The translations under genes were made by a program, and so were the position numbers. From Endomychus coccineus (taxonomy: Eukaryota > Arthropoda > Insecta > Coleoptera > Endomychidae), in assembly GCA_958510875.1 (NCBI GenBank), contig OY294067.1, positions 199,332,524 through 199,396,523 on the forward strand: a stretch of 64,000 nt of DNA, written 5' to 3'. The notes beneath the pieces are model-generated. The model had not been told where the DNA came from and did no database searches. It saw only the letters and a list, made by a program, of their open reading frames with translations. Each line of letters starts with the position of its first letter. The stretch's first letter is position 1. Below are positions 7,840-50,700 of this stretch, piece after piece.

Positions 7840-8444
7840 GCCATTATGCCTAATACCTGGAATTGTCCTTCGTTGCGCAAAATGATGTGCCTTTCCATCC
7901 TTCTCAATACCAGCAAGGCTTCTAGGCCAGACGGAATTTCATCTGTGCCTCTCTAGGACTGTGCGCCAGAATCAATAACAGTTTTCTGCAGGTTGTTCAC
8001 CCTTTCATATAAACTTCGTATGTTCCCTTCCAGCAGGAAGACGCTGGAGTTTGACCAATTGCTTAAAAAGAATTCCTACTAGTTATAAACCCATTGCACT
8101 ATCACTTGTGACATCTTAAGTGAAAAAGAAATCAATCAACATCTAGCTCATCCAGTACTAGAGAGCTCCAAAATTGTGAATGACCGGCAATATGGCTTTC
8201 GTCAGTAGAGTTCAACTGGAGACCTTCTCGCCTACGTAACACATATTTGGTAGAAATTTGTTGAAAAATATGAGGAATCTCCAGCTATAGCACTGGATAT
8301 CTCCAGAGCATTTGATCGAGTCTGGCACAAAGACCTTCTTGAGAAACTTTTTTGGTTTCCCGCCTCGACTTTTTCACTACTAGAAAGTTTTCTCTCAGTA
8401 GATCAGTTCATGTGATGGTTGACGGAGTACCCTTCAATACAATG
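7840..8444 (+). pseudogene. Non-LTR reverse transcriptase relic, 5' part, split by the Polinton
   Basis: Translated blocks in several frames show RT motifs: TSKASRPDGIS (near 7905), NDRQYGFRQ (near 8180), TGDLLAYVTH, then SPAIALDISRAFDRVWHKDL with the first catalytic Asp (near 8285-8335). The last block, VMVDGVPFNT, ends at 8438. Stops and frameshifts show it was dead or dying. The reading resumes beyond the Polinton at 20612 with MAINDAVTQGSLLAPSLFL, the next RT block. This proves the Polinton inserted inside it. Confidence 0.85.
8439..8444. repeat. 6-bp target-site duplication (left copy)
   Basis: acaatg lies immediately outside the left terminal AG of the Polinton. The same six bases lie outside the right terminal CT at 20612-20617. 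Six-bp duplications are characteristic of Polinton/Maverick integration. Confidence 0.93.
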
Positions 8445-8649
8445 AGTAGATGAACTCCGCTACCACGGCACCAGGATATCCGGTCTCCACATCCGGTCTA
8501 GCTGTCGATGTGCATCCTGTGCATGAGCTCGTCCTTATTAGTTTTGAAAGGATGTAGGTGATAAGGATTTTATTCTATTTGTAAAGAGTATACAGGCTGT
8601 GTTCAAAAAGTGTATCACATGTACAGAGTCACGTGACTAACACATGACA

Positions 8650-8935
8650 GCATGGCGGCCCTAAGGTCCAACTGTCATGGCGACCATAAGGTCCAGCTGT
8701 CATGGCGACCATAAGGACCAGCTGTCATGGCGACCATAAGGACCAGCTGTCATGGCGACCATAAGGACCAGCTGTCATGGCGTCCATAAGGACCAACTGT
8801 CATGGCGACCATAAGGATCAGCTGTCATGGCGTCCATAAGGACCAGCTGTCATGGCGGCCATAAGGACCAGCTGTCATGGCGACCATAAGGACCAGCTGT
8901 CATGGCGACCATAAGGACCAGCTGTCATGGCAATC
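8650..8935. repeat. 25-bp tandem array inside the left TIR
   Basis: About 11 units of ccagctgtcatggcgaccataagg(a/t) occur here. Each carries a CAGCTG E-box core. A mirrored array sits at about 20120-20400 in the right TIR. Confidence 0.9.
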
Positions 8936-9114
8936 ATGAGGTACAGGTTGCTTCGTGTAGGTGTCACCACCAAGTGACAGCTGTCATGGTGACCATAAGG
9001 TCCAGCTGTCATGGTGACCATAAGGTCCAGCTGTCATGGCGAGCATGAGGTACAGCTGTCATGGCTACCATAAGGTCCAGCTGTCATGGCGACCATAAGG
9101 TACAGCTGTCATGG

Positions 9115-9640
9115 CGAACCCAAGGTACAGACTGCTTCGTGGAGGGGGCTCCGCCACCTCTAGGAAGCAATCTGTACCTTTGGTCCAAAGGTACAGGCTG
9201 CTTCATGGAGATGTCACCACCACGTGACAGCTGTCATCGAAGGTACAGAATGCTTCGTGGAGATGTCGCCACCACGTGACAGCTGTCATGACGACCCTTG
9301 GGTACAGGCTGCTTCATGGAGATGTCGCCACCACATGACAGCTGTCATGGCGGACCAACGGTACAGGTTGCTTCGTGTAGGTGTCACCACCACGTGACAG
9401 CTGTCATGGTGAGCTAAAGGTACAGGCTGCTTCATGGAGATGTCGCCACCACATGACAGCTGTCATGGTGAACCAAAGGTACAGGTTGCTTCGTGTAGGT
9501 GTCACCAACACGTGACAGCTGTCATGGTGAGCTAAAGGTACAGGCTGCTTCGTGAAGGTGTCACGTGACAGATGTCATGGCGGACCGAAGGTACAGGCTG
9601 CTTCGTGTAGGTGTCACCACCACGTGACAAAGACTGCTTT
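9115..9640. repeat. Roughly 59-bp tandem array inside the left TIR
   Basis: Units combine aaggtacaggctgcttc, a gtgtcaccaccacgtgac block and agctgtcatgg, with about 9 imperfect copies. Each unit has CACGTG or CATGTG next to CAGCTG. Chance ORFs such as 9061-9279 run through it. The mirrored array lies at 19420-19945. Confidence 0.85.
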
Positions 9641-9731
9641 GTCATTGTTTCAATCCGGCGACCATAGTTTACGAACGATGATGACGTCACTGCTTCGAAC
9701 CGATGACAGTAACTGATTCAATACGGCGACC

Positions 9732-9775
9732 ATAGTTCACGAACGATGATGACGTCATCATCGTTCACGAACTAT
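9732..9775. repeat. 44-bp near-perfect palindrome at inner end of left TIR
   Basis: The sequence runs atagttcacgaacgatgatga, then cg, then its inverted half, centred on TGACGTCA. Two positions per arm (ca versus gt) do not match. The mirrored copy is at 19281-19324. Confidence 0.85.
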
Positions 9776-10034
9776 GATGGTCAGATGAGGAATGAAATGC
9801 GAGTAATAATAATGATACTCTATGTGTAAATGTGAATAGTTGGAGGTTATGATAAAGATATCCAGTAAGTTTGTAAATGTGTCATTATGCATATATCTTT
9901 TGAAGAATACAAACGTATACTTAGAAAATTTGTGGAGAAAGTTCATGAACTAAGAAGAGACTTGAATTTTTACGAAGATAAAATAAAAGTTATAAGACTG
10001 TTGAATACATTTACAAGTGCAAAAAGTGAAGATA

Positions 10035-10538
10035 ATGATGGGAGTGGGGATGTTAAAAACAAATTTCGTGATTCTAACCACAATTCTGAATGGTATTCTA
10101 TACGCGAACGTTCCCCAACACGTTGAGCGCATTTATATTTGTCTGAAGGATGTTGCAACCGATGGTGGTGGGGGGTGTAACCGTACCGAATGGATTCCGA
10201 TGAATTTTAGAAAAATCAACGATAATCAATTAGAGGTATTCGCATTCAACATTCCTCAAGATAATCGTACCACCATACATTATAAACTTAAACTTTTATT
10301 CTTTGATCGGAGTGAGGGAGATATGGCTGAATGGCAATTGCTCCAACAATCATCATGTTTACCACATGTCATACAAAAGACAATATCAACACCATCCACA
10401 CGTACATCATCCTCACTAGACGAAGAAATTTCTAAAATTTTCGCAATTTTGTATGCAATTTTATCTTCTTTATCAGTACTAATGTTGAAAATGTTTGTTA
10501 AATATGTAAAGAAGGCTATTTACCATGTAAATAAATGA
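10035..10538 (+). CDS. Putative Polinton membrane glycoprotein
   Basis: This gene of about 167 codons is the only one in the Polinton reading rightward. The first ATG pair is at 10035/10038; the open frame extends back to a GTG at 10017, which I did not use. It has a signal-peptide-like stretch (TNFVILTTILNGILYAN), then an ectodomain of about 110 residues with Cys residues and two N-glycosylation sequons (CNRT, DNRT). A Ser/Thr-rich stalk follows, then a transmembrane segment near the C terminus (IFAILYAILSSLSVLMLKMFV) and a short basic tail. This is the layout of a type I membrane protein. A polyadenylation signal lies at 10562-10567. I do not recognise a family. A surface or host-interaction role is inference. 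It is too small to look like a class I-III fusion protein. Confidence 0.6.
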   Translation: MMGVGMLKTNFVILTTILNGILYANVPQHVERIYICLKDVATDGGGGCNRTEWIPMNFRKINDNQLEVFAFNIPQDNRTTIHYKLKLLFFDRSEGDMAEWQLLQQSSCLPHVIQKTISTPSTRTSSSLDEEISKIFAILYAILSSLSVLMLKMFVKYVKKAIYHVNK

Positions 10539-10583
10539 TTGTATGAAGATATAAGTGTTTTAATAAAACAAAAGGAATGATAA

Positions 10584-11581
10584 TTATAATAATATATTGA
10601 CATTATCATTTGCTAGTTCATAAGCTTTATTTTTGTGATTGATAACACATTCTATCAATGACTCGATGTTGATATCACTAATCAATTGTTCACCCCCCTC
10701 TTCTTCTGCGGCATGAATAATATTTCCTCTTGCATACCATTTCAAATCGTGGCGGAAATTCTGTTTCACTTCGTTACCAATATCGATAGCATGAGATATG
10801 TTAGACCATTTACGTATTAATCGCATTACCCGATTTTGTAATTTTCTGTCGGCATCACGCCAACCATCCTCCTGTCGACGCATTAGGTACCATTCTGGTC
10901 TCATATCATTCGATGTTCGATGTAATCCTAAATAATATATATTATATAAATTTTATTATAAAAAACAAAGTAATTACCTAAATTTCGTCTCTTTCCAAAA
11001 TTTATAGGAGGTGGAACAATATTTGGTGCAATGTTATTCCGTAAGGTGATAACATTCATTTGAATTTGTTGAGATAAGCGTTGAGATCGTTCTTTCGCAA
11101 GACATTCACGTTCCTCAGCTCTTTGACGTTCTTGTTGTTCATAGAATTTCTCGTACTCACAATATTTCATCATAACAAATTTCATTAACGAAAACAGTTC
11201 ACGTAACTCGATGACTTTAGGAGTTCGCATTTGCATCAATAATGATTCGAAATCAATAGCATCTAGAACATAATATTTCTTTCGTGCATCAGTCTTATCA
11301 CAAATTTCTAAATGGTGTATATGCGGGTTTTTCCTCAACAATCTTGTTATAACACTCTTTTTAGCATGATATTTTTAGCCGCGATAACCTAACCAATCCA
11401 ATAGATCTTCATTCATCAGAACGCGTTGGTTTAGTTGAATGATCCAAAATAAATAGTTTCTTTTATCGTTTCTTATATCGATCCCAAATTTTAGACACAC
11501 TTCATTAACTGTTAACTTAATAAAATTGTTGGTGGACCATGTAGCCACATTTGAATCACGAACGCACGCTGCTAAGTTCAT
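10584..11581 (-). pseudogene. MSV199-domain protein gene, one intron, one in-frame stop
   Basis: An ATG at 11581 opens a segment with VLMNEDLLDWLGYRG. A TAA at 11375-11377 interrupts it, but the same frame continues to 10978 with YYVLDAIDFESLLMQM and ELFSLMKFVMMKYCEYEKFY. The residues resemble MSV199 domains of large DNA viruses, which often pair with BRO/KilA-N-type modules. Minus-strand bases 10977-10928 form a 50-nt GT...AG intron (gtaattac...tatttag) in phase 1. The second exon (10927-10584) holds RPEWYLMRRQEDGWRDADRK and ends at 10584. Without the TAA the product would be about 315 residues. Function in this family is poorly known; nucleic-acid binding is inferred. Its 3' end converges on the glycoprotein gene. 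The stop could be a lesion or readthrough; a lesion is more likely. Confidence 0.65.
10928..10977 (-). other. 50-nt GT-AG intron in the MSV199-type gene
   Basis: On the minus strand the donor is ttag|gtaatta and the acceptor is atttag|gatta. Removing it joins two open frames in phase 1, whereas the unspliced frame runs into low-complexity FYNKIYIIYII. It is AT-rich, as small insect introns are. Confidence 0.7.
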
Positions 11582-11719
11582 TTTTATAACTGAACATTTT
11601 CTGAAATGATTCTCTCTTACATACGTGAGAACGTGAACGTAGGGGGGTAACTCTCCGTTTCGATATCATTGCAAACGTTGATAACTGACTGATAACGTCA
11701 CTAGTTGTTTCAATTTGTT

Positions 11720-11770
11720 TCATTTCCAGCAACCGACTACCATAGTTTACAAACAATGATCGTCGGATGT
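11720..11770. promoter_or_regulatory. Internal copy of the TIR-inner motif
   Basis: ccgactaccatagtttacaaacaatgatcgtcgg at 11732-11765 is a diverged copy of the TIR-inner sequence ccggcgaccatagtttacgaacgatgatgacgtc. It lies about 150-180 bp upstream of the MSV199-type gene start and downstream of the major capsid gene. A promoter or replication role is inferred. Confidence 0.45.
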
Positions 11771-11828
11771 TTACATCACCACCTACCGTTTGAGAAATAA
11801 AATATCAAATATAATAATAATAATAACA

Positions 11829-11834
11829 TTTATT
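11829..11834 (-). terminator. Polyadenylation signal after major capsid gene
   Basis: AATAAA on the minus strand, about 75 nt beyond the major capsid stop codon. Confidence 0.6.
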
Positions 11835-11905
11835 GGGAAAGATACATTTTGATAGTACATCATTTAGAACATAAATTATAACATTATGATTCATCACCTG
11901 GTTCT

Positions 11906-13108
11906 TCACACCAAATTCCGAACTGATCCTGTAATCGGAGAATACTCCATTATACGATCGTTAATGATGATGCAATAAGCCCTGGTGTTTTTGGGGAAAT
12001 TCAGGAAACTTTCCATCTCTAGTTTGACGTCAACTGTTGATGACTTTATAGCATCGTTTTGTTTTGAACAGTCAATCACAAAAATTGCTCTATCCTCGAA
12101 TGCTATATAATCTAACATAGGCTCACTTATTATTTTATTTGAAAATGATTTCTGGAAATCATAGTACATCTGGTATGCTTCCACGTATTGCTGGTCGGTG
12201 AATTTCAATTTCATTGCTTCATATGGATAACACTCTGAATTCAAGTATAATTTAACATTTAGCAAGTTTATATTATCGAAATATGCACTGTGCTTAACAG
12301 GATTATTTTTTCGATCAGTTTGGAAAGCTAGAATCACATATCTGGGTCGTTCCAAATTCATTGAAGTTTTAACAGCCCAAATGTCGCGAGTGCTCTCCTT
12401 CATCAACGGATTTTCATGCAGATCCCAACTACGGAATCGAATCAAAATAGGCTTCTCAGCACTCAAATTCCCCAACATTTGAAATTTAACTTGATCACTT
12501 GGAAACACATGTCGCACTTTTAATGCTATCGTCTTCACATTTATTTTAGCCGTTTTCGTGCCTGTGCTATTAGTATAGCAATCGTTATCGGTTCGAGACC
12601 TTATCAAGCGCAGCTTATGTTTCCCACTCAAAACTTTGTTATAGTCAATGAATAGGCCTAGTAGAAAATTCAACGGTATCCATAAATTGATTTTATTATT
12701 GTAGACTGAACTCAATACATCCTTAAATGACCATCCAGAAATAGCTAGAGGTATAGATTCATGTTTGGCATATGTTAGATAAGCTCTGATGGTGCTGACA
12801 ATACCAGGATCACGTACTTTGTCTATCTCTTTCCCATTCAATTCATAACTGATATATTCGAAGAGAAACGCTCCGAAATTATTCGTTAGTTTACATTCAC
12901 CATCACCACTTGCTTCTGGCTGGAATTCTGCCTCGATGAATAAAGCAGACGAGGCCAAATCTACCAACACATCTTGTTGATTGATTAATATCTCAATTTC
13001 ATCGCTGTTGCCAAAAGATGTTGTGTGGGGATAGTAGGTATGAGTTTCTCCTCGGATGATGTCTTCATTGAAGTTTGGCTCGTTGAATATTTGAAGTTTT
13101 TCCGACAT
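11906..13108 (-). CDS. MCP: Polinton major capsid protein (double jelly-roll type)
   Basis: This 400-residue protein starts at the ATG at 13108 (MSEKLQIF); the longer open frame to 13117 begins with TTG. The N-terminal pattern (TYYPHTTSFGNSDEIEILI, then DLASSALFIEAEF) and the FLFEYISYELNGKEIDK block fit the first jelly roll of Polinton capsid proteins. In C. elegans and arthropod elements such proteins are annotated F54H12.2-like. The product would form trimeric capsomers of an icosahedral virion. The position beside the minor capsid, PLA2, protease and ATPase genes supports this. The frame is intact. The length matches shorter members of the family. Assignment is by motif and context, not alignment. 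Confidence 0.8.
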   Translation of the reverse strand: MSEKLQIFNEPNFNEDIIRGETHTYYPHTTSFGNSDEIEILINQQDVLVDLASSALFIEAEFQPEASGDGECKLTNNFGAFLFEYISYELNGKEIDKVRDPGIVSTIRAYLTYAKHESIPLAISGWSFKDVLSSVYNNKINLWIPLNFLLGLFIDYNKVLSGKHKLRLIRSRTDNDCYTNSTGTKTAKINVKTIALKVRHVFPSDQVKFQMLGNLSAEKPILIRFRSWDLHENPLMKESTRDIWAVKTSMNLERPRYVILAFQTDRKNNPVKHSAYFDNINLLNVKLYLNSECYPYEAMKLKFTDQQYVEAYQMYYDFQKSFSNKIISEPMLDYIAFEDRAIFVIDCSKQNDAIKSSTVDVKLEMESFLNFPKNTRAYCIIINDRIMEYSPITGSVRNLV

Positions 13109-13244
13109 TGTAACCAAGGGACTTCAAGAAATTGATATTTTCCAATGATAGTGATGCAGAAGCAACCTTCTCCCTCGAGCTCGTTGTAGATAATGACTGA
13201 TGACCACTATGGAGATGTCTTTTATTGCTGAAATCCAAACCCAT
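13065..13244 (-). CDS. Small ORF with N-myristoylation motif, overlaps MCP start
   Basis: This 59-residue ORF begins MGLDFSNKRH, which fits the MGxxxS/T N-myristoylation rule with downstream basic residues. It is Ser-rich in the middle and ends with a hydrophobic block, SLENINFLKSLGYNV, and a basic tail. The ATG (aacATGg) is in a good context, and a TATA-like TATATGAAA lies about 45 nt upstream (near 13290). Its last 44 nt overlap the major capsid start in another frame. Many dsDNA viruses encode small myristoylated virion proteins. A virion-core or membrane role is inference. It fills an otherwise empty 200-nt gap, so chance is possible but less likely. Confidence 0.5.
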   Translation of the reverse strand: MGLDFSNKRHLHSGHQSLSTTSSREKVASASLSLENINFLKSLGYNVGKTSNIQRAKLQ

Positions 13245-13324
13245 GTTCTCAAGTGATGGCTACTGCAACCTTCTCAGTTGAATTCCTTTCATATAATGAG
13301 TGGTGGTGAGTATTAGATTATTAT

Positions 13325-14062
13325 TTATTGTTGTGAGGTATAATCCCTAACGATCTTTTTCAATTCCAATCGTATAATAATTTCTTCTCCACGAAAATTT
13401 ACCGGTTTCCAATTCTGATCTAAAATATTCAGCGTGATGTTATCGAAGGACGTCTTGCTGAAGACCGGTAGATAAATAAGATTCTTCGGCTCTATATCAA
13501 TGGAAAACCAAGGTGGTACAAGAGGTGAGAACTCATATATCGTATGAGCTATCTTATTGTTATAATATGCTCCTGCGGTTAAGTTACACTCAACACGTAT
13601 TATTTGAACTTTGATTATGTTTATAGGTCGATCTGATACGTGTAGTTCGCGAGATGTCAATTTCTTTTTGCCCAACAGTTCGCTTATACTATCTTTAGGA
13701 ATAAAATTCACTTCAAAATCACTCTTCAGCTCTGTGTGTAGAGTGTTGTTGTTAGATTTTATTGATAATTTCCGGTCACGTTCTTCTTGCTTCACTCCTA
13801 TCCCACAAACTGCACTTTGTATGAAATCCTCGATGTCTGTCAACTCGTAGGACCCCGTAGGTATAGTTACTACTTCTTCCTCACCCTTCACATTTTTATA
13901 ATAAAATTTATTAAAACCTTCTTCAATGTTCGGAATGCTATTGTACGTATGCAAGCCAATAAGTGCGATAGAATAATATGAATGAGGATCTAGTTCTATA
14001 GGTGGGTGGAAATCTACAGATGAGCGGGAGCTCTTACACGTGATAGTGAACGTCTGAGACAT
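13325..14062 (-). CDS. Polinton minor capsid (penton-like) protein
   Basis: Translation probably starts at the ATG at 14062 (MSQTFTITCKSS), giving 245 residues. An upstream ATG at 14086 sits within a few bases of a TATAAATA box (14090-14097), so it would lie at or before the transcription start. The protein is beta-rich, with SVDFHPPIELDPHSYYSIALIGLHTYNSIPN at its start and conserved-looking aromatic/Pro blocks (PLVPPWFSIDIEPKN) near the C terminus. This matches the penton-like single jelly-roll proteins of arthropod Polintons, which fill the fivefold vertices. It sits between the major capsid and protease genes, as expected. The stop codon overlaps a CAATAAAT polyadenylation signal. Confidence 0.7.
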   Translation of the reverse strand: MSQTFTITCKSSRSSVDFHPPIELDPHSYYSIALIGLHTYNSIPNIEEGFNKFYYKNVKGEEEVVTIPTGSYELTDIEDFIQSAVCGIGVKQEERDRKLSIKSNNNTLHTELKSDFEVNFIPKDSISELLGKKKLTSRELHVSDRPINIIKVQIIRVECNLTAGAYYNNKIAHTIYEFSPLVPPWFSIDIEPKNLIYLPVFSKTSFDNITLNILDQNWKPVNFRGEEIIIRLELKKIVRDYTSQQ

Positions 14063-14089
14063 GATTAATGCAAACTTTACCAACAATCT

Positions 14090-14097
14090 ATTTATAT
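14090..14097 (-). promoter_or_regulatory. TATA box upstream of minor capsid gene
   Basis: TATAAATA on the minus strand lies 28 nt upstream of the ATG at 14062. Comparable boxes precede the ATPase gene (near 18812-18819), the DUF8207-like gene (near 18053-18066) and the PLA2-protein gene (TTAAATAA near 15297-15304). This suggests separate promoters for each gene. Confidence 0.5.
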
Positions 14098-14113
14098 ACT
14101 AATAAATGCAGGG

Positions 14114-14494
14114 TTAGTCGAGCACAACTGAAGAGTTAGAGAGGAAATCTAAACATAACTGACCACAATTGTAAGTGTTATATTGTTGAAAATTATCCTG
14201 ATTGAATAATATCTTACACTTTTTGAAATAATCCACTAGTTCTCGAGGGGGGCGTAAATTGCCAAAACTAACATAATATAAAACTGTATCACCGACTTCA
14301 TTAAACCCAACCCAGTGAGTGCCTCCATTGTCCGAGCTATCTAAATTAACTATTCCACGCTCGTTTTTCCATGGTCCGTTGGATGGCAGTTCATCACGCA
14401 TAAATACTCCTCTAAAATGGGGAATTTTCAGAGCTTTTGCTAGTTTTCGTAGATCGAGATCGGTCAGAGGTCTTCTGGGTAGGTTTACTGACAG
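14114..14494 (-). CDS. PRO: Adenain-like cysteine protease, probably a -1 frameshift product; catalytic Asp changed
   Basis: Adenovirus-type (C5) maturation proteases process virion proteins. This open frame holds PHFRGVFMRDELP, GIVNLDSSDNGGTHWVGF with the catalytic His, and NTYNCGQLCLDFL with the nucleophile Cys. The first ATG (14401) falls inside the conserved VFMRDEL block. The open, family-like sequence extends about 31 codons upstream without any ATG, as far as 14494. That is exactly where a slippery heptamer ends in the preceding PLA2 gene, so entry is likely by -1 frameshifting (126 residues after the shift). The acidic residue expected after the His (a Y-F/Y-D-S-F-G pattern) is Val here (YYVSFG, codon GTT). 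One base change would have removed the catalytic Asp, so this copy is probably inactive. Confidence 0.75.
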   Translation of the reverse strand: MSVNLPRRPLTDLDLRKLAKALKIPHFRGVFMRDELPSNGPWKNERGIVNLDSSDNGGTHWVGFNEVGDTVLYYVSFGNLRPPRELVDYFKKCKILFNQDNFQQYNTYNCGQLCLDFLSNSSVVLD

Positions 14495-15267
14495 TTTTTT
14501 GGATGTTTATTTAAATATAGACCAAGACCTTTGCGATACTTTTTCAAATATAGACCAGATCCTTGTTTCCCCAAAGCTATAGCTTCCATTGTTTTATTAT
14601 GTCTTTCCGTTTCCTCCAAGGTTTTCCAAGCTGCTTTGCTGTCGTTGACGGCCTTAGCGATGCCTGCACCACCCCCCGCCAATGCTCCAGCAGCTGATAA
14701 GCCGGCAAACAGAGGTATTAAAAATGGTAGAAATCCTCCAGTCTTTGGAATAGGAATTACTCTTGGTAACCGAACATTTTTCCGACCACCCGCTTTTTTG
14801 AATTGTTTTCGTGCAACTTTCAACGCTGTTTGGGATGTTTTCTTCAGATTGGATGAGTCAAACTTATTCTTCATAACTTTTCTCACCTCATCGACAATTG
14901 CACTTCCGAACCCAACCTTCTTTCTTATACCCATTCCCAATTTCCTCTTTGCCTTCATAATTTTATTTACACCGAAAGCGGCAATCCTTTCTCCAAATTT
15001 TGTGTCTTTAGATTTGACACGTTGCCAAGCAGCGTTCTCTAATATTTTATCCGCCTTGTGACGTCCTTCCAAACTAGCGTTCCGCAGATATGAAATATCG
15101 TGTTGGCGGCAAGCTTTATCGAGTGGATTGATACCTGAATCTCCTCTTCTCAACCGTTCTTCTAATTTTGTACCGGGACCACAGAATTGATAACCAGGAA
15201 TATGAAGTTCAAACGGGAGCTTGTTTATAAGCGTATTGAGAACACCTTCTCCTACGTACGCTTCCAT
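14485..15267 (-). CDS. PLA2-domain minor virion protein
   Basis: This 260-residue protein has an N-terminal phospholipase A2 fold of parvovirus-VP1 type. The calcium loop is YQFCGPGT (residues 26-33), and the active-site helix is NPLDKACRQHDISY with the His-Asp pair. Both are intact. The middle is Lys/Arg-rich and would suit DNA binding. A hydrophobic, Gly/Ala-rich segment follows (GGFLPFLIPLFAGLSAAGALAGG, about residues 172-195). The C terminus has repeated GLYLKKY/GLGLYL motifs. PLA2 activity in a virion protein serves membrane breach during entry. The hydrophobic region recalls membrane-lytic minor proteins. Its last codons contain A_AAA_AAC, leading into the protease frame. A TATA-like TTAAATAA precedes the start. 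Confidence 0.8.
   Translation of the reverse strand: MEAYVGEGVLNTLINKLPFELHIPGYQFCGPGTKLEERLRRGDSGINPLDKACRQHDISYLRNASLEGRHKADKILENAAWQRVKSKDTKFGERIAAFGVNKIMKAKRKLGMGIRKKVGFGSAIVDEVRKVMKNKFDSSNLKKTSQTALKVARKQFKKAGGRKNVRLPRVIPIPKTGGFLPFLIPLFAGLSAAGALAGGGAGIAKAVNDSKAAWKTLEETERHNKTMEAIALGKQGSGLYLKKYRKGLGLYLNKHPKNCQ
14494..14500 (-). promoter_or_regulatory. Candidate -1 ribosomal frameshift site A_AAA_AAC
   Basis: On the minus strand the PLA2-gene codons read ccA AAA AAC tgt cag taa. This is the canonical X_XXY_YYZ heptamer in the correct zero frame, six nucleotides before the stop. Slipping back one base enters the protease frame at once. Downstream, GUCAG (2 nt after the heptamer) can pair with CUGAC about 20 nt later, and other small hairpins are possible. 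No strong pseudoknot is obvious by eye. Confidence 0.65.
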
Positions 15268-15346
15268 ACAGACTGATGAAAATTCAAGATTGCACCGTTA
15301 TTTAACGAGGGGAGGGAGAAAGACCAAAGATCTCAAAATAATATTT

Positions 15347-15352
15347 TTTATT
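15347..15352 (-). terminator. Polyadenylation signal downstream of integrase region
   Basis: AATAAA on the minus strand, about 200 nt after the stop of the displaced chromodomain frame and before the PLA2 gene. The remaining 15268-15547 shows no gene. Confidence 0.5.
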
Positions 15353-15547
15353 GATTTCAAAATTTTCTCAATACAAAAGACTTAAGTATAATCTTAACAA
15401 TATATGTTTCAAATATTATAATCTTCACTCTTGATTCACCCTCATATTCACGGAATTTTTGTTCTATTATAATAACCATACCCTCGAGTCAATAATATTC
15501 CAGCTATTTGTTTGTTCCTAATAATCTAAAAATGGTCAATGATGGAT

Positions 15548-15634
15548 TCATTGAACGAGATCCGAATTATTGATCCAACTGTTGTGATTATTATCTAGAC
15601 CCAACCATTTCACATACTGTTGACCGTACTCCAA
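15548..15634 (-). pseudogene. Displaced chromodomain end of the integrase
   Basis: A different frame from the integrase reads LEYGQQYVKWLGLDN, then NHNSWINNSDLVQ and a stop. This is a clear chromodomain end: the YxVKWxG core and the NSWI block. Polinton integrases carry such a domain at the C terminus. The integrase ORF ends at 15610 just after the SH3-like block, so a frame-changing deletion has joined the two. Confidence 0.7.
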
Positions 15635-16308
15635 TTGGGCGTAAATCCCTTCTCAAAAATATGTTTAGCCTTACTTATTCGTACCACATCTCCAACGTTG
15701 TATTTGTGAGGCAGAGCTAACTTGATGTGTGAGTAGGATCGCTTCAATATCTCGCTCTCAATCTGTTTCGTCACTTTTATTGGAGCCATATTTATAGTAC
15801 TATGTTTACGTTTATTATATTTTTCTGTGGTTTCTTCAAGTATATCAAGCCATTTGTATTTCCCGCTGAGACTGAAATGTTTGTAGAGCGATTCCCTTAA
15901 CGTTCGAATGACACGTTCAGCAATGGCTGCTTTTTTCACACTATACGTATTATAATGATTGATATTATGTTTCTTCATTAGATCGTTAAAGTGTTTATTG
16001 AAGAATTCTTTTCCCTGATCGCTTTGCAGATTTCTAGGCTTACGATGTCCTTCTAGCAATATAGAACTGACCGCTTTCCGAACTTCTTCGGCTGATTTCG
16101 TTTTCAGCGGGCGTGTCCATGGAAATTTCGAGAAACAATCGATCATAATCAAAATGTATTTGAATCCTCTATTTTCACGAGCGTAATTACCCATTTCTGC
16201 CAGATCCATTTGCCACAAATCATCCAAACCTTTTATGATCGTTCTGCGTCGTTTGAAATTCTTCCTACTCGGCTTATGAAGCTCATGCACAACTTGTTCT
16301 CTACTCAT
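15610..16308 (-). CDS. INT: Retroviral-type (rve) Polinton integrase, C terminus damaged
   Basis: This integrase inserts the element DNA and makes 6-bp duplications. The 232-codon frame has the catalytic core: DLWQMDLAEM (first Asp), YILIMIDCFSKFPW, NLQSDQGKEFFN (second Asp) and KKAAIAERVIRTLRES (Glu, about 34 residues later). It then has the beta-rich GDVVRISKAKHIFEKGFTPNWS block. The N-terminal zinc-binding part is largely absent: the ATG lies just before the VHELHKPSRKNF linker. The C terminus breaks off after FTPNWS. A chromodomain end survives in another frame at 15634-15548, so a deletion of perhaps 60 codons plus a frameshift is inferred. Arthropod and nematode homologues are annotated F54H12.3-like. 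Probably inactive in this copy. Confidence 0.82.
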   Translation of the reverse strand: MSREQVVHELHKPSRKNFKRRRTIIKGLDDLWQMDLAEMGNYARENRGFKYILIMIDCFSKFPWTRPLKTKSAEEVRKAVSSILLEGHRKPRNLQSDQGKEFFNKHFNDLMKKHNINHYNTYSVKKAAIAERVIRTLRESLYKHFSLSGKYKWLDILEETTEKYNKRKHSTINMAPIKVTKQIESEILKRSYSHIKLALPHKYNVGDVVRISKAKHIFEKGFTPNWSTVNSM

Positions 16309-16325
16309 CTTATCAATGTGGAAAT

Positions 16326-16979
16326 CTAGTGTAGGATTAATTTTTTGGGTATATTCACAGGATTTGGAGATATACGTTTCACAGAGCCCTGCTTTGTTGT
16401 TGTGGATGATGAGGGTCTCTTCTTAGAAGGTTCCACAGATGTCATCCGTCGTTCTAACGCCTCCACTTTACTAGTAATGTCATTTAGACGCATGTTCACA
16501 CTGTTAAATGTGTTATTGATCTCTTTCAATTCATTTCTGTTTTCCCTCACACTATCACTGAATGTTTTATACTCTGATTTTATATAGATCCCCATTCCAT
16601 TATATTTATTCTGAATGTCCATCAGATGTTCATCAATGTTGAGAATAACCTTGTCATTCGTTAAGTTATGTTCATCCAGATCCTTGTTGATATCTTTGAT
16701 CAAATTATCAACCCTAACATTGAAGGTATCTTTAAGACTGGTTTCCGTTTTCAGATTCAGTTTGTGTGTTAATTTATCAACATATACTTTATTTGCAACA
16801 TCTCCATCATCATTCGGTGATTTTACGTTGCACAATCTACGATTTTCCATATCATAACTTCCATCGCTCGTTAGGAATAATCCTTGTCCGTGAACTTGTT
16901 TGAAATTATTATTAAATACATTTGTATCATATATCCACATGGAAGAGGAGGCTCTGCCAAACTTATCCATTGAAACCAT
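16326..16979 (-). CDS. Fibre-like trimeric coiled-coil protein
   Basis: This 217-residue protein opens with a globular start (MVSMDKFGRASSSMWIYD). It then has GLFLTSDGSYDMENRRLCNV, followed by KSPNDDGDVANKVYVD. The NRRLCNV...GDVANKVYVD pattern resembles the R-I-x-N-V...D-A-x-x-K-x-Y-V-D motif of phage and viral tail-fibre shafts. About 100 residues of heptad-like helix follow (NTFNSVNMRLNDITSKVEAL), then a basic Ser/Thr/Lys-rich C terminus. A trimeric attachment fibre or a scaffold is the best guess, inferred from motif alone. Its start overlaps the previous gene by 17 nt, with a second ATG forming ATGGATAA with that gene's stop. No catalytic motif is present. Confidence 0.5.
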   Translation of the reverse strand: MVSMDKFGRASSSMWIYDTNVFNNNFKQVHGQGLFLTSDGSYDMENRRLCNVKSPNDDGDVANKVYVDKLTHKLNLKTETSLKDTFNVRVDNLIKDINKDLDEHNLTNDKVILNIDEHLMDIQNKYNGMGIYIKSEYKTFSDSVRENRNELKEINNTFNSVNMRLNDITSKVEALERRMTSVEPSKKRPSSSTTTKQGSVKRISPNPVNIPKKLILH

Positions 16980-18027
16980 CTTTATAACTGTGATGAATTT
17001 GTCTTACACCTGGTTTTTGTTCAATTACCCCTGCCTCTATCAATTCTTCTATTATAGAGATTATCTCATTCTGATGATTATGGTTACCTGCATGCGAGGA
17101 TGCAACAAGAAGTCTCAGTCTATCCACAATTTCGTTAACGTCATCCCAATAAACATATTCGATAGGTTTCTCGTTATATTCAAGCATATCATTTTTGATA
17201 TATGCACTTCCAGTGTATGTTTTGGCTCTGGGTCTTCTCATGGAATTAATCAAAGGTTTCAGTACATTTTTGTATTTTACAATGTTTCTTATTCGATCAG
17301 CTGGATCGTTATTACGTCTATGGGCACTAGTCATTTCCATCATTTGACTGTAATTTTTCCCATCTTCCACAGTGTAAGTATCAGGTAGAACATCTCTGTA
17401 AAATATCAAATTATACAGTCCTGTGGTACCCTTGAACGAAGTACCCTTGATAATTATATTACTCTCACTATCAATTTCTATAGGTTGATTACCCATGAAC
17501 CATTTGTCTGAAGTTGAATTATATTGCAATCCCATTCTATCATCGTATTTCTTGACATCATCATCCAATAGGAATCCTTCCAAATAATAACGTGCTAATG
17601 TGGGGTATTGTTGCAGAAACTCCTCTGTAGCCTCTGCATTATCTTTCTTATGTTTTCTGAATTCTTCACGGATCTGATCGATAGTAGGTTCGAGGGTAAA
17701 CACATCCTCCTCAGTATTTTGGGGGTTATATACGAACTCTTCCCCTTCAGTTACAATATTTGGGATTGGTATGTTCTCCATTTGTGTTGCTGTAGAAACA
17801 ATACTTTTAGGTTTAACCAACGAATTTTGTTTGATTATTTCAGCATTTTTCGCAATTTCCTCCAGAGGTTTAGATACATTCCTGAACATATTATCTAGAA
17901 TCTCATCATTTTCAGCTTTACCCAATTTCACAGCCATATATTTTTTCCTCACAACGTTTGCTAACTCCCAAATTTTTTTCTTCAATTGTTGTTCTTCTTT
18001 AAGCGTGTTACTCACACCCACGTCCAT
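16963..18027 (-). CDS. Conserved Polinton protein (DUF8207-like)
   Basis: This 354-residue protein has a helical N terminus (EEQQLKKKIWELANVVRKKY) and an acidic middle. A C-terminal domain carries IIIKGTSFKGTTGLYNLIFYRDVLPDTY and YSQMMEMTSAHRRNNDPADR, then GSAYIKNDMLEYNEKPIEYVYWDDVNEIVDRLRLLVASSHAGN. The KGTxGLYxLIF...AHR pattern is one I remember from insect proteins labelled DUF8207 that accompany Polinton genes; this is from memory and unverified. Function is unknown. It lies between the ATPase and fibre-like genes and has its own TATA-like box (near 18053-18066). Its 3' end overlaps the next gene by 17 nt. Confidence 0.6.
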   Translation of the reverse strand: MDVGVSNTLKEEQQLKKKIWELANVVRKKYMAVKLGKAENDEILDNMFRNVSKPLEEIAKNAEIIKQNSLVKPKSIVSTATQMENIPIPNIVTEGEEFVYNPQNTEEDVFTLEPTIDQIREEFRKHKKDNAEATEEFLQQYPTLARYYLEGFLLDDDVKKYDDRMGLQYNSTSDKWFMGNQPIEIDSESNIIIKGTSFKGTTGLYNLIFYRDVLPDTYTVEDGKNYSQMMEMTSAHRRNNDPADRIRNIVKYKNVLKPLINSMRRPRAKTYTGSAYIKNDMLEYNEKPIEYVYWDDVNEIVDRLRLLVASSHAGNHNHQNEIISIIEELIEAGVIEQKPGVRQIHHSYKDGFNG

Positions 18028-18069
18028 GCTGAGCGGGTTGTCTATTTCAAATGAAAGTATATATACATG

Positions 18070-18795
18070 TTAGATGTATATATAACTATCAAAACCTTTG
18101 CGATAACGTCCTTTGTTCATATCACAGTCTTTGTTTATCATAAGGGATCCATATTTATCTTTCCAACATACGCTACATATCTCTTTGAATTTTTCGAGTG
18201 ACATGTCGGTACTTACATGATCGGTGAATATATGTTCCAAATTGAGCTCATCCTGTTTGAAAATAATCAAGCAATTGGCATTGTCGCGCAATCCATGTTT
18301 TGGACATTTAGCAAAAGACTGGCAAAGATAGAAACTATCAATTGAGTTGTGTCTCCCTCTTGAAAAATAAGCACGAATTTTCTCCTGTTTCTCAAACATC
18401 ACGTCATCGAATATTATGATTGAATTAGGCCTCGCTTCTGTGAGGTCTATGACCTCATCACTTTCGGTACAAGGAAAATATCCAAGCCCCTCAATTTTCT
18501 TCAATGTCTCCTTTAGTAACTGGTATTTTGGTTGGTGTAAAGACTTTGAATATATGTACACGTTTTCAAATTTCAGACCGTTTGCATCTAACAATAGAGA
18601 TAACATCACATTTGTTTTCCCACAATTACTTGGACCACAGATTATTGTTCGTAGAGTATTAGGCAGCAAAGAGCTGTGACGTTGTGGTTGTTCAACATTC
18701 TCATTGCTTGACCCTAAGTTCATAATACTCAACGAGTCTTTTTGCTTAACAATCTTCATCATGCCTGAAGGCGAATCGAAATCATACTGGAACAT
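18070..18795 (-). CDS. ATPase: Genome-packaging ATPase (FtsK/HerA, A32-like)
   Basis: This 241-residue NTPase would pump the element's DNA into capsids. The Walker A is GPSNCGKT (about residues 54-61), followed by NVMLSLL. The Walker B is SIIIFDDV (about residues 123-130), with MFEKQEKIRAYFSRGRHNSID after it. A conserved-looking sensor segment is YLCQSFAKCPKHGLRDNAN, and the LNLEHIFTDHVSTDMSLEKF end is typical of Polinton and virophage-type packaging ATPases. The frame is intact. A TATATAAA box on the minus strand lies about 20-25 nt upstream of the ATG at 18795. An E-box-rich tandem array lies beyond it, toward the right TIR. Confidence 0.85.
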   Translation of the reverse strand: MFQYDFDSPSGMMKIVKQKDSLSIMNLGSSNENVEQPQRHSSLLPNTLRTIICGPSNCGKTNVMLSLLLDANGLKFENVYIYSKSLHQPKYQLLKETLKKIEGLGYFPCTESDEVIDLTEARPNSIIIFDDVMFEKQEKIRAYFSRGRHNSIDSFYLCQSFAKCPKHGLRDNANCLIIFKQDELNLEHIFTDHVSTDMSLEKFKEICSVCWKDKYGSLMINKDCDMNKGRYRKGFDSYIYI

Positions 18796-18909
18796 ATGTT
18801 AATAAGCATTTGTTTATATACTAGATGATGATGTTATATTGTGTATGTCTGATCACGCGGTTAGGTGCTTCTACGGTTCTGTCAAAATCAGGTATCAAAT
18901 ACATGTTAA

Positions 18910-19200
18910 ATAGGTACGAATGCTGGAACACGTGTCTGAATGTTGAAACAAGTGTCTGAATGTTGAAACACGTGTCTGAAACACGTGTCTGAATGCTGAA
19001 ACACGTGTCTGAATGTTGAAACACGTGTCTGAAACACGTGTCTGAATGTTGAAACACGTGTCTGAATGTTGAAACACGTGTCTGAATGTTGAAACACGTG
19101 TCTGAATGTTGAAACACGTGTCTGAATGTTGAAACACGTGTCTGAATGTTGAAACACGTGTCTGAATGTTGAAACACTTGTCTGAATGTTAAAGCATGTG
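18910..19200. repeat. 20-bp tandem array with CACGTG, upstream of ATPase gene
   Basis: About 14 units of gttgaaacacgtgtctgaat are present, some shortened to 13 bp (gaaacacgtgtct). Each carries the palindrome ACACGTGT. The array lies between the ATPase promoter and the right TIR. ORFs of 80-139 codons through it are products of the repeat period and are not genes. Confidence 0.9.
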
Positions 19201-19275
19201 TTGAATCATGCGAAAAAACATGTGTATGAATGTAATACAATCATTATGATTATTAACATTTTATTCCTCATTAGC

Positions 19276-20611
19276 CCATCATAGTTCGTGAACGATGATG
19301 ACGTCATCATCGTTCGTGAACTATGGTCGCCGGATTGAATCAGTTACTGTCATCGGTTCGAAGCAGTGACGTCATCATCGTTCGTAAACTATGGTCGCCG
19401 GATTGAAACAATGACAAAGCAGTCTTTGTCACGTGGTGGTGACACCTACACGAAGCAGCCTGTACCTTCGGTCCGCCATGACATCTGTCACGTGACACCT
19501 ACACGAAGCAGCCTGTACCTTTAGCTCACCATGACAGCTGTCACGTGTTGGTGACACCTACACGAAGCAACCTGTACCTTTGGTTCACCATGACAGCTGT
19601 CATGTGGTAGCGACATCTCCATGAAGCAGCCTGTACCTTTAGCTCACCATGACAGCTGTCACGTGGTGGTGACACCTACACGAAGCAACCTGTACCGTTG
19701 GTCCGCCATGACAGCTGTCATGTGGTGGCGACATCTCCATGAAGCAGCCTGTACCCAAGGGTCGCCATGACAGCTGTCACGTGGTGGCGACATCTCCACG
19801 AAGCATTCTGTACCTTCGATGACAGCTGTCACGTGGTGGTGACATCTCCATGAAGCAGCCTGTACCTTTGAACCAAAGGTACAGATTGCTTCCTAGAGGT
19901 GGCGGAGCCCCCTCCACGAAGCAGTCTGTACCTTGGGTTCGCCATGACAGCTGTACCTTATGGTCGCCATGACAGCTGGACCTTATGGTAGCCATGACAG
20001 CTGTACCTCATGCTCGCCATGACAGCTGGACCTTATGGTCACCATGACAGCTGGACCTTATGGTCACCATGACAGCTGTCACTTGGTGGTGACACCTACA
20101 CGAAGCAACCTGTACCTTATGATTGCCATGACAGCTGGTCCTTATGGTCGCCATGACAGCTGGTCCTTATGGTCGCCATGACAGCTGGTCCTTATGGCCG
20201 CCATGACAGCTGGTCCTTATGGACGCCATGACAGCTGGTCCTTATGGTCGACATGACAGCTGGTCCTTATGGACGCCATGACAGCTGGTCCTTATGGTCG
20301 CCATGACAGCTGGTCCTTATGGTCGCCATGACAGCTGGTCCTTATGGTCGTCATGACAGCTGTACCTTATGGTCGCCATGACAGTTGGACCTTAGGGCCG
20401 CCATGCTGTCATGTGTTAGTCACGTGACTCTGTACATGTGACACACTTTTTGAACACACCCTGTATACTCTTTACAAATAAAATAAAATCCTTATCACCT
20501 ACATCCTTTCAAAACTGATAAGGACGGGCTCATGCACAGGATGCACATCGACAGCTAGACCGGATGTGGAGACCGGATATCCTGGTGCCGTGGTAGCGGA
20601 GTTCATCTACT
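19276..20611. repeat. Polinton right terminal inverted repeat
   Basis: This is the inverted partner of 8445-9780, ending ...GGTAGCGGAGTTCATCTACT. It contains the mirrored 59-bp (19420-19945) and 25-bp (20120-20400) arrays and the 44-bp near-palindrome at 19281-19324. Confidence 0.92.
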
Positions 20612-20710
20612 ACAATGGCTATTAATGATGCTGTTACGCAGGGCTCTCTCTTGGCACCAAGTTTGTTTCTGCACGATATCAAAGATCTGTTGCTGTTCAG
20701 AAATGCTTAT
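20612..20710 (+). pseudogene. Non-LTR RT relic, 3' part beyond the Polinton
   Basis: The first six bases (acaatg) are the right copy of the Polinton target duplication. MAINDAVTQGSLLAPSLFLHDIKDLL then continues the RT interrupted at 8438. The QGSLLAPSLF block is the conserved one that follows a VDG block in non-LTR RTs. Recognisable RT sequence fades soon after, although the ORF runs to 20848. Confidence 0.8.
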
Positions 20711-25740: not shown

Positions 25741-26903
25741 GTGATTCATTTATCACATCCTACATACCGGTTGGAATGTATGAAGGAATTAAGAGCCATT
25801 TTGAAAGAAAATTCATATCCATTAAAATTAATTAATAAATTTTTGTTCAATTCTGATCAAAAACAAAATTTAAACAATAATCAAGTCCCAACTAATATTA
25901 CTCCAAATGTAAACAATAATGTTACAAACAATACTAACGAAGAATTGCCACCTCAACAAATTACTTTTTTGTACAGGACTCTACCTTACATTGAAGATCT
26001 CCCACCAAAGCTTACCAACATTTTCAAATTAGAAAATCTTCGGATTGCTAAAAAAAATTCAAAAACAGTGTCAAGCCTCTTCACAAAAACTAAGGTTCCT
26101 CTAACAACACTAGAGTGTTCTAATGTAATTTACAGTATTCCTTGTTTGAATTGCGAAAAGGTCTACATAGGACAAACCGGGAGAAATTTATCAGGACGCA
26201 TTACTTCACATAAAAGTGATTGTAAGTTAAAAAAAAATAGTTGTGCACTTGCAGAGCACACTATAGATTTCAAACATTTTGGCAATTTCAATAATCCAAC
26301 TATTTTGGCTAGGGAAAATAACTGTTCTAAAAGAAATTTCCTCGAAATGGTTTTTATTAAGAATCAACTGAATTGTATGAACAAAAGTTCTGATATTGCA
26401 AATTTAAGTGTGATATACAATTATTTACTTAATTTCGACAAAAAGGGCGAAGGCGACCCTGTTCTAGTTTCAAATCTACCGCCGTAAATCAAGTGTGAGA
26501 CCTTGGTATCTAACAAGTGGTCTTCTCCAATTGGCTGAATAGACTTGTCAATTGATTTATGACTTTCCTTCTGTCAGTTTTCATTGTTTCCAATGGCAGA
26601 CAGGAATGTTTATCTTTAATGTTACTGGAATTTTTAAATCACTTTTAATATGTTTGTATGTTGTTTTATAAGATATTGATGATTTTGTGCGCTGTTAGTT
26701 TTATGCCAGCAACCTCAAGTTAGTAAGTCGTTTTCACTATTTACAAGTGACGTTTGTTTTACAATTAGACCTTGTTTTTCAGATGTCTTGAAAATGAAAA
26801 TAAATTATTTCGAAAGCTCGACAATTTAACAAAGAGTTTCTCTTTATATTGGCCGTTCCCATTGACTGCAACCTCAAGGAGAACATCTTTTAGTTGTTTC
26901 CAA
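25741..26903 (+). repeat. Direct copy of the PLE-1 3' end (pLTR-like)
   Basis: It is nearly identical to about 28741-29905 and includes a 248-codon frame (25741-26487) with the GIY-YIG domain (CEKVYIGQTGRNLSGRI) and the whole 3' untranslated part. Penelope elements often carry such head-to-tail partial copies ahead of the full copy. Confidence 0.85.
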
Positions 26904-50680: not shown

Positions 50681-50700
50681 CGGTATATTAGGCTTATGAA

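What the first reader, a model, noticed from the sequence alone, without database searches (positions are those of the whole stretch)
14494..14500. Canonical A_AAA_AAC slippery site fuses the PLA2 virion protein to the adenain-like protease
Seen: the heptamer is in the correct zero frame, 6 nt before the PLA2-gene stop. Slipping -1 enters the protease frame immediately. That frame has no ATG for 31 codons, although it encodes family-like sequence (PHFRGVF and upstream). Known: X_XXY_YYZ sites drive -1 frameshifting. Inference: the protease is made as a C-terminal extension (about 384-residue product) of a minor virion protein, giving a built-in ratio and packaging of the protease.
Basis: partly seen in the sequence, partly recalled or inferred. 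Interest (0 to 1): 0.9.

Follow-up and report, generated by a model that had tools for sequence, protein, structure and literature searches.

The report
Slippery site joins phospholipase to protease
In a virus-like mobile element (a Polinton) in what is likely an insect genome, the phospholipase gene ends in the seven-base sequence A_AAA_AAC, which is predicted to make some ribosomes slip back one base and so attach a protease to the phospholipase; the same sequence sits at the same place in several diverged relatives, so it is likely used, much as retroviruses do to make their protease.

Summary
Confirmed exactly: A_AAA_AAC, zero frame, 6 nt before the PLA2 stop; the -1 frame enters an adenain-like protease with no ATG for 31 codons; predicted product 384 aa. 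The heptamer recurs, with the protease in -1, in three further families of the same genome (one with synonymous sites near saturation) and in a distant IMG/VR contig. Of 120 listed PLA2 homologs, 112 end in K-N 0-5 residues before the stop, and the residue before K can always have an A-ending codon (0 of 112 exceptions; 9-50 of 112 at positions -2 to -14). Conserved, structured protease sequence lies before its first ATG. Eighteen relatives (7 named, all ants) carry PLA2 and protease in one protein record. Against: no stimulatory structure found; one family has A_ACA_AAC; 91 of 120 protease homologs have a called start at or above the domain, so reinitiation is not excluded there; no expression data. 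Most likely a gag-pro-like -1 frameshift giving a minor PLA2-protease fusion; dosage and packaging are inference. Nearest published mention: predicted adintovirus Penton and Hexon-Adenain slippery sites (PMC11071296).

The parts
14494..14500 (-). A_AAA_AAC slippery heptamer in the zero (PLA2) frame
   Evidence: conserved
14485..15267 (-). PLA2 gene, 260 aa, ends ...HPKNCQ*; stop TAA 14487-14485
   Evidence: PF08398 Phospholip_A2_4 E 1.1e-10
14114..14506 (-). adenain-like protease, open -1 frame (130 codons, no upstream ATG); coding after the slip starts with CTG at 14494
   Evidence: AF2 pLDDT 91.6, Foldseek best match adenovirus protease 1nln E 7.8e-8; profile match 1avp E 4e-5
14399..14401 (-). 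first ATG of the protease frame, inside the FRGVFM motif, after a conserved helix and at the end of a strand
14468..14482 (-). 15-nt stretch CTACCCAGAAGACCT, starting 11 nt 3' of the heptamer, identical in family B; weak candidate for a stimulator
   Evidence: second longest identical run; 31-nt window from the heptamer 27/31 identical, rank 28 of 1,123
8445..20611 (.). the Polinton element, 12,167 bp, ACAATG target-site duplication at 8439-8444 and 20612-20617
8445..9816 (.). left terminal inverted repeat, 1,372 nt, 98% complementary to the right one
19240..20611 (.). right terminal inverted repeat
11906..13108 (-). double jelly-roll major capsid protein, 400 aa
   Evidence: PF21738 E 8.3e-89
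13325..14062 (-). 245-aa ORF after the protease, no Pfam match; minor capsid or penton by position (inference)
15610..16308 (-). integrase (rve), 232 aa
   Evidence: PF00665 E 5.4e-15
18070..18795 (-). A32-like packaging ATPase, 241 aa
   Evidence: PF04665 E 2.1e-6

Best explanation
The PLA2 gene of this Polinton ends in A_AAA_AAC, and this is predicted to be a programmed -1 ribosomal frameshift site at which a minority of ribosomes would slip from the PLA2 frame into the overlapping adenain-like protease frame, yielding a likely 384-aa PLA2-protease fusion. Shown by sequence: heptamer, frame relation, missing start codon, conservation in four of five sampled families of this genome and in one distant viral contig, and single-protein fusions in records of other relatives. 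Inferred: both tRNAs (on AAA and AAC) re-pair one base back; most ribosomes do not slip and stop two codons on, giving PLA2 alone; the fusion brings the maturation protease into the virion with the membrane-active PLA2 protein at a low fixed ratio, as retroviral Gag-Pro does; the fusion may later be cleaved.
For: Heptamer in frame. 39 of 40 own-genome copies read, window included. Family B, 66%/65% aa identity with synonymous sites near saturation (protease dS 1.76; PLA2 dS not computable): CAA AAA AAC TAC CAT TAA, protease in -1, no ATG before FM; 26 of 30 copies keep the heptamer letters. Family C 2 of 2 and family E 3 of 3 sampled copies (grouped by eye). IMG/VR contig L022, 38% identity: AAA AAA AAC CCA GAG TTT TAA, protease in -1, no ATG before FRGVFM. 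112 of 120 PLA2 homologs end K-N 0-5 aa from the stop; residue before K never one without an A-ending codon, 0 of 112 against 9-50 of 112 at positions -2 to -14; what follows fits a T in 108 of 112 (my tally of the tails printed). Protease residues 16-36 form a confident helix and strand before or up to the first Met, and the adenain profile match begins before it. Eighteen records hold PLA2 and protease in one protein. A_AAA_AAC is among the shiftiest heptamers on mammalian ribosomes (passage of PMC5009743) and is the gag-pro site of MMTV, IAP, BLV and HTLV (table passage of PMC3835772).
Against: No hairpin beyond shuffles downstream in the window, B or L022 (the lowest is B over 120 nt, z -1.48, 15 of 200 shuffles as good); a simple H-type pseudoknot scan found none in the window and one in L022 that 22 of 60 shuffles match (B not scanned). 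Family D has A_ACA_AAC in 4 of 4 copies read although the -1 offset is kept and no ATG lies between that site and the domain. 8 of 120 PLA2 homologs lack the terminal K-N. 91 of 120 protease homologs have some called start at or upstream of the domain. Own-genome copies drift neutrally in PLA2 (63 N, 29 S, 2 stops against 66, 24, 4 expected), so their sameness is mostly recency; 28 of 43 older A-type copies keep the heptamer, about what decay would leave. No RNA, ribosome or protein data.
Confidence: 0.82

Rival explanations
1. Termination-reinitiation: ribosomes finish PLA2 and restart on a protease-frame start codon that overlaps or adjoins the PLA2 stop, making a free protease.
For: 91 of 120 protease homologs have a called start at or upstream of the domain; at least 11 begin M-K-L-P (list), which fits an ATGA or TGATG overlap with endings such as KNYQ* or KN* (inference from residues).
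Against: No ATG in the protease frame between slip site and FM in the window, family B, the sampled D and E copies or L022; in family C one of two copies has an ATG, in the RPMYD stretch after L-P, where the other has ATA. 24 of 120 homologs are called only from inside the domain. It does not explain the A before K-N nor the one-protein fusions.
Confidence: 0.08
2. Transcriptional (polymerase) slippage on the A run: an extra A in some mRNAs puts the protease in frame; same fusion, different machine.
For: A run of 6 in the window, 7 in family B, 11 in L022; two decayed A-type copies and one B copy carry one more A.
Against: Runs of 6-7 are short for this (recalled); the C that ends the heptamer and the A|AAA|AAC phase are kept across families A, B, C and E, which ribosomal slippage needs and polymerase slippage does not.
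Confidence: 0.05
3. Decay or assembly artefact: one continuous gene split by an indel in a homopolymer.
For: One-protein fusions exist in relatives; indels in the A run occur in old copies.
Against: The junction is free of indels in 40 of 40 young copies read, and the same -1 offset with a stop 3-9 nt after the slip site is found in families A, B, C, D, most E copies and L022 (in the E copy L137 the stop is farther).
Confidence: 0.03
4. A spliced mRNA joins the two frames.
For: The element is nuclear DNA, so introns are possible; not tested.
Against: Splicing would not conserve K-N and its preceding A within 0-5 codons of the PLA2 stop in 112 of 120 homologs.
Confidence: 0.02

Closest known systems
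Retroviral gag-pro -1 frameshift at A_AAA_AAC (MMTV, IAP, BLV, HTLV; table passage of PMC3835772)
   Same: Same heptamer, same direction, maturation protease joined C-terminally to a structural protein near its stop
   Different: Double-stranded DNA element; papain-like adenain-type protease instead of an aspartic one (recalled); PLA2 protein instead of Gag; no pseudoknot found
Predicted slippery sites in adintovirus Penton and Hexon-Adenain ('Hexain') genes (PMC11071296, section 16 read whole)
   Same: Related dsDNA elements; a predicted -1 shift that can add adenain to a virion protein
   Different: That section gives a few sentences, other partner proteins, and does not name PLA2-adenain or show conservation; supplements not read
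Spodoptera Maverick CAP (PLA2) and PRO genes (PMC5803895, passages)
   Same: Same gene pair in insect Mavericks, PLA2 domain in a capsid-like protein
   Different: Passages seen treat CAP and PRO as separate ORFs; the two frameshift passages concern errantiviruses
Adenovirus protease with its 11-aa peptide cofactor (PDB 1nln, title)
   Same: Fold and, by recall, a link between the protease and a membrane-active virion protein (pVI)
   Different: There the link is a cofactor peptide, here a predicted translational fusion

Membership tests
Programmed -1 frameshift signal | X_XXY_YYZ in the zero frame | tested here: met
   A_AAA_AAC
Programmed -1 frameshift signal | Downstream gene in the -1 frame, overlapping, without its own start | tested here: met
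   22-nt overlap, first ATG at codon 36 inside the fold
Programmed -1 frameshift signal | Site conserved across diverged relatives | tested here: met
   families A, B, C, E, L022 and 112 of 120 homologs by residue; not met in family D
Programmed -1 frameshift signal | Stimulatory structure shortly downstream (usual, not universal) | tested here: not met
   fold z -0.97 and -0.16; no H-type pseudoknot in the window by a simple scan; z 1.17 to -1.48 across A, B, L022
Programmed -1 frameshift signal | Measured -1 product | not testable with these tools
   no expression data
Polinton/Maverick | Long TIRs and 6-bp target duplication | tested here: met
   1,372-nt TIRs, ACAATG
Polinton/Maverick | rve integrase, A32 ATPase, double jelly-roll capsid | tested here: met
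Polinton/Maverick | Protein-primed PolB | tested here: not met
   no Pfam PolB match in the 11 ORFs of this copy that I scanned (frames listed): a PolB-less Polinton derivative; presence elsewhere in the genome not tested
Adenain (peptidase C5) | Fold and His/Gln/Cys residues | tested here: met
   1nln top match, prob 1.00; H64, Q107, C114 invariant in A2; PF00770 below its cut-off for the window protein, matched by 21 of 30 members at E<=1
Adenain (peptidase C5) | Third, acidic active-site residue | tested here: inconclusive
   nearly invariant Asp79 in the family; Val in the window copy and L003; assignment as catalytic is recalled

The most novel reading that the evidence does not exclude
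Insect Polintons, and some of their virus relatives, ancestrally use the retroviral gag-pro solution: a conserved A_AAA_AAC -1 frameshift appends the maturation protease to the membrane-piercing phospholipase virion protein, setting protease dose and packaging, while ant lineages switched to a constitutive one-frame fusion in which the same A_AAA_AAC would let a minority of ribosomes drop out as free PLA2.
Probability: 0.5. Interest if true: 0.85.

Novelty: new variant of a known kind. Interest (0 to 1): 0.74.

Why it matters
Polintons carry capsid, ATPase and protease genes, but how they time virion maturation is unknown (recalled). A conserved frameshift that ties the protease to a membrane-active virion protein would be the DNA-element counterpart of retroviral Gag-Pro, would show selection for virion assembly in elements often treated as transposons, would correct annotations in which the protease starts too late, and can be tested with a small reporter.

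Tried and rejected
Single-sequence scans of viral contigs found nothing. Alignment scans gave L021 (PLA2 only, 25% identity), L022 and L023 (the same contig as L022); both genome-contig scans were empty. Downstream structure: none. The 15-nt run shared by A and B after the heptamer is suggestive only. Artefact and single-copy decay were rejected and the other families. The N:S ratio of the protease across copies (5:19) was not used, since those copies were ranked by protease similarity. L022's upstream protein is only weakly like the PLA2 proteins' Gly/Ala-rich part (hhalign probability 26, 40 columns), so homology of the partner is open. The genome-wide count of the exact junction did not complete. 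The pairing of PLA2 and protease proteins on one contig was made by me from equal contig lengths, a lead only.

Full report
What is there. On the minus strand the PLA2 gene (15267-14485, 260 aa, PF08398 E 1.1e-10) ends CAT CCA AAA AAC TGT CAG TAA. The heptamer A_AAA_AAC (14500-14494) is in the zero frame, 6 nt before the stop. The frame one base back is open from 14506 to 14114, overlaps PLA2 by 22 nt and encodes a protease whose first ATG is codon 36. Random codons of the element give any canonical heptamer in a 7-codon stretch in 2.9% of draws and A_AAA_AAC in 0.27%.

What the downstream frame is. A profile of 30 sequences (the window protease and 29 relatives) finds adenovirus protease in the PDB (1avp, E 4e-5); the AlphaFold model (pLDDT 91.6, pTM 0.86) matches adenovirus protease best (1nln, E 7.8e-8, probability 1.00). 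The model's first helix (16-25) and first strand (31-36) lie before or end at the first Met (M36), with block pLDDT of 94-97, so translation from that ATG would lack a conserved part of the fold.

The carrier. The element spans 8445-20611 (12,167 bp) with 1,372-nt TIRs and an ACAATG target duplication; it has capsid, integrase and ATPase genes and no Pfam PolB match in the 11 ORFs scanned. The genome (906 Mb, unnamed) holds at least 150 copies of this protease at 98% identity or more, all 150 with the frame open (150 of 3,185 first-look candidates were scored). Of 40 copies that I read (the 20 best-ranked, which include the window's own, and 20 that I picked from the list), 39 keep A_AAA_AAC, one has G_AAA_AAC (L004), and 40 keep the TAA. 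PLA2 variants in 39 of them follow neutral proportions (63 N, 29 S, 2 stop against 66, 24, 4 expected), so sameness within this family mostly reflects recency.

Other families in the genome. A PLA2 pattern that excludes the young family found 88 places: 58 are older relatives of the window family, and 30 belong to family B. Family B is 66% (PLA2) and 65% (protease) identical in protein, with synonymous sites near saturation (protease dS 1.76; fourfold third bases differ at 61% of 57 and 50% of 16 sites). It has CAA AAA AAC TAC CAT TAA, the protease in -1 and no ATG before FM. The heptamer letters are kept in 26 of 30 B copies and 28 of 43 older A copies; in 15 of 58 the junction did not align. 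A protease pattern found 67 places, of which I could read 10 short stretches. Grouped by eye, family C keeps A_AAA_AAC in 2 of 2, family E in 3 of 3 (one of these, L137, has a stop upstream in the PLA2 frame), family D has A_ACA_AAC in 4 of 4 (22 places share its 24-base motif), and one old A-type copy (L143) has lost the heptamer; the -1 offset is kept in C, D and E.

Outside the genome. IMG/VR contig L022 (38% identity) has an upstream 213-aa frame without a PLA2 match, ending ACT AAA AAA AAA AAC CCA GAG TTT TAA, with the protease in -1 and no ATG before FRGVFM. Of the 120 listed of 2,202 PLA2 homologs (53-65% identity, 249-303 aa, none holding a protease motif), 112 end K-N followed by 0-5 residues. 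At the residue before K, 0 of 112 are of the kind that has no A-ending codon, against 9-50 of 112 at positions -2 to -14; 58 representatives remain at under 70% identity over the 60 residues before K-N. What follows fits a T in 108 of 112 (my tally of the tails). A protein motif would not forbid just the residues that lack an A-ending codon; a nucleotide motif A_AAA_AA[C/T] would.

Fusions in one protein. A search with one such protein (P0174) found 518 relatives, 120 listed. Of 92 proteins that I examined, 18 hold full PLA2 and protease together and 9 more hold the PLA2 C-terminal half with the protease. Seven of the 18 carry a host name and all seven are ants (Temnothorax, Trachymyrmex); the other 11 are unnamed. 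How each was predicted is not shown, and models from annotated eukaryotic genomes may be spliced. 15 of the 27 keep K..KN near the junction by a simple pattern.

Results against. No stimulatory structure was found. Of 120 protease homologs, 91 have a called start at or upstream of the domain, 24 only inside it and 5 are long or fused; at least 11 of the 91 begin M-K-L-P, which fits a start codon at the PLA2 stop, so reinitiation remains possible in those species. Family D has lost the canonical heptamer yet spread. Nothing here measures expression.

Mechanism and comparison. The best reading is a -1 frameshift as at retroviral gag-pro, where MMTV, IAP, BLV and HTLV use AAAAAAC (table passage of PMC3835772); A_AAA_AAC is listed among the shiftiest heptamers on mammalian ribosomes (passage of PMC5009743). 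Fixed protease dose and packaging with the PLA2 protein are inference. In print, PMC11071296 (section 16) says some adintovirus Penton ORFs may hold a slippery sequence and that a similar relation was seen for potential Hexon-Adenain fusions. In the listings of my ten paper searches and the passages that I read I saw no PLA2-protease frameshift; the Starrett adintovirus paper is not held and no supplements were read.

Noticed in passing
window 8445-20611; L044, L045, L046: A 12.2-kb Polinton derivative with capsid genes but no PolB match; its protease gene exists in at least 150 near-identical copies, and the parts of three other copies that I read are collinear with the window.
   Followed up: partly
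window 14114-14506: A nearly invariant Asp of the protease family (residue 79 of the open frame) is Val in the window copy and in L003, so this copy's protease may be inactive; copies without this change exist.
   Followed up: partly
window 15610-16308; L046:1521-2444: The integrase ORF is 232 aa here but the ORF at the same place in another copy is 307 aa, so the window copy's integrase looks truncated.
   Followed up: no
G000:C3:181296089, 181314646, 181333203: Three copies at an exact spacing of 18,557 bp, with at least 2.6 kb of non-element DNA after the first: looks like a tandem triplication that includes a Polinton.
   Followed up: no
L136, L139, L140, L141: Family D has A_ACA_AAC at the slip site in 4 of 4 copies read yet keeps the -1 offset, and 22 places share its motif; perhaps served in trans by other families.
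   Followed up: partly
proteins P0241-P0256, P0174: In many one-protein fusions the junction reads K-K-N-[V/F]-[D/E/K]; with GTT or TTT codons a -1 slip at A_AAA_AAC would meet a stop at once, a possible reversed arrangement (DNA not available).
   Followed up: no
proteins P0154 and P0323: Equal contig length (2,842 bp) suggests one contig where PLA2 ends ARKKKRR* and, judged from residues, the protease lies in the +1 frame, differing from one-frame copies by the A-run length.
   Followed up: no
L022:2409-2419: The slip site lies in a run of 11 A in this IMG/VR contig, long enough for polymerase slippage as well.
   Followed up: no
proteins P0020, P0036: PLA2 homologs labelled as Rickettsia endosymbiont proteins, likely insect Polinton DNA in bacterial assemblies.
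   Followed up: no
window 16963-16979: The 354-aa and 217-aa ORFs of the element overlap by 17 nt; no in-frame slippery heptamer there.
   Followed up: partly
window 10584-11804: Several stop-separated reading-frame pieces on the minus strand after the capsid gene; the two that I scanned have no clear Pfam match; possibly one decayed gene.
   Followed up: no
window 25780-29496 and 49307-52032: Reverse-transcriptase ORFs ending in a GIY-YIG-like stretch, in inverted arrangement: look like Penelope-like elements (by eye, recalled).
   Followed up: no
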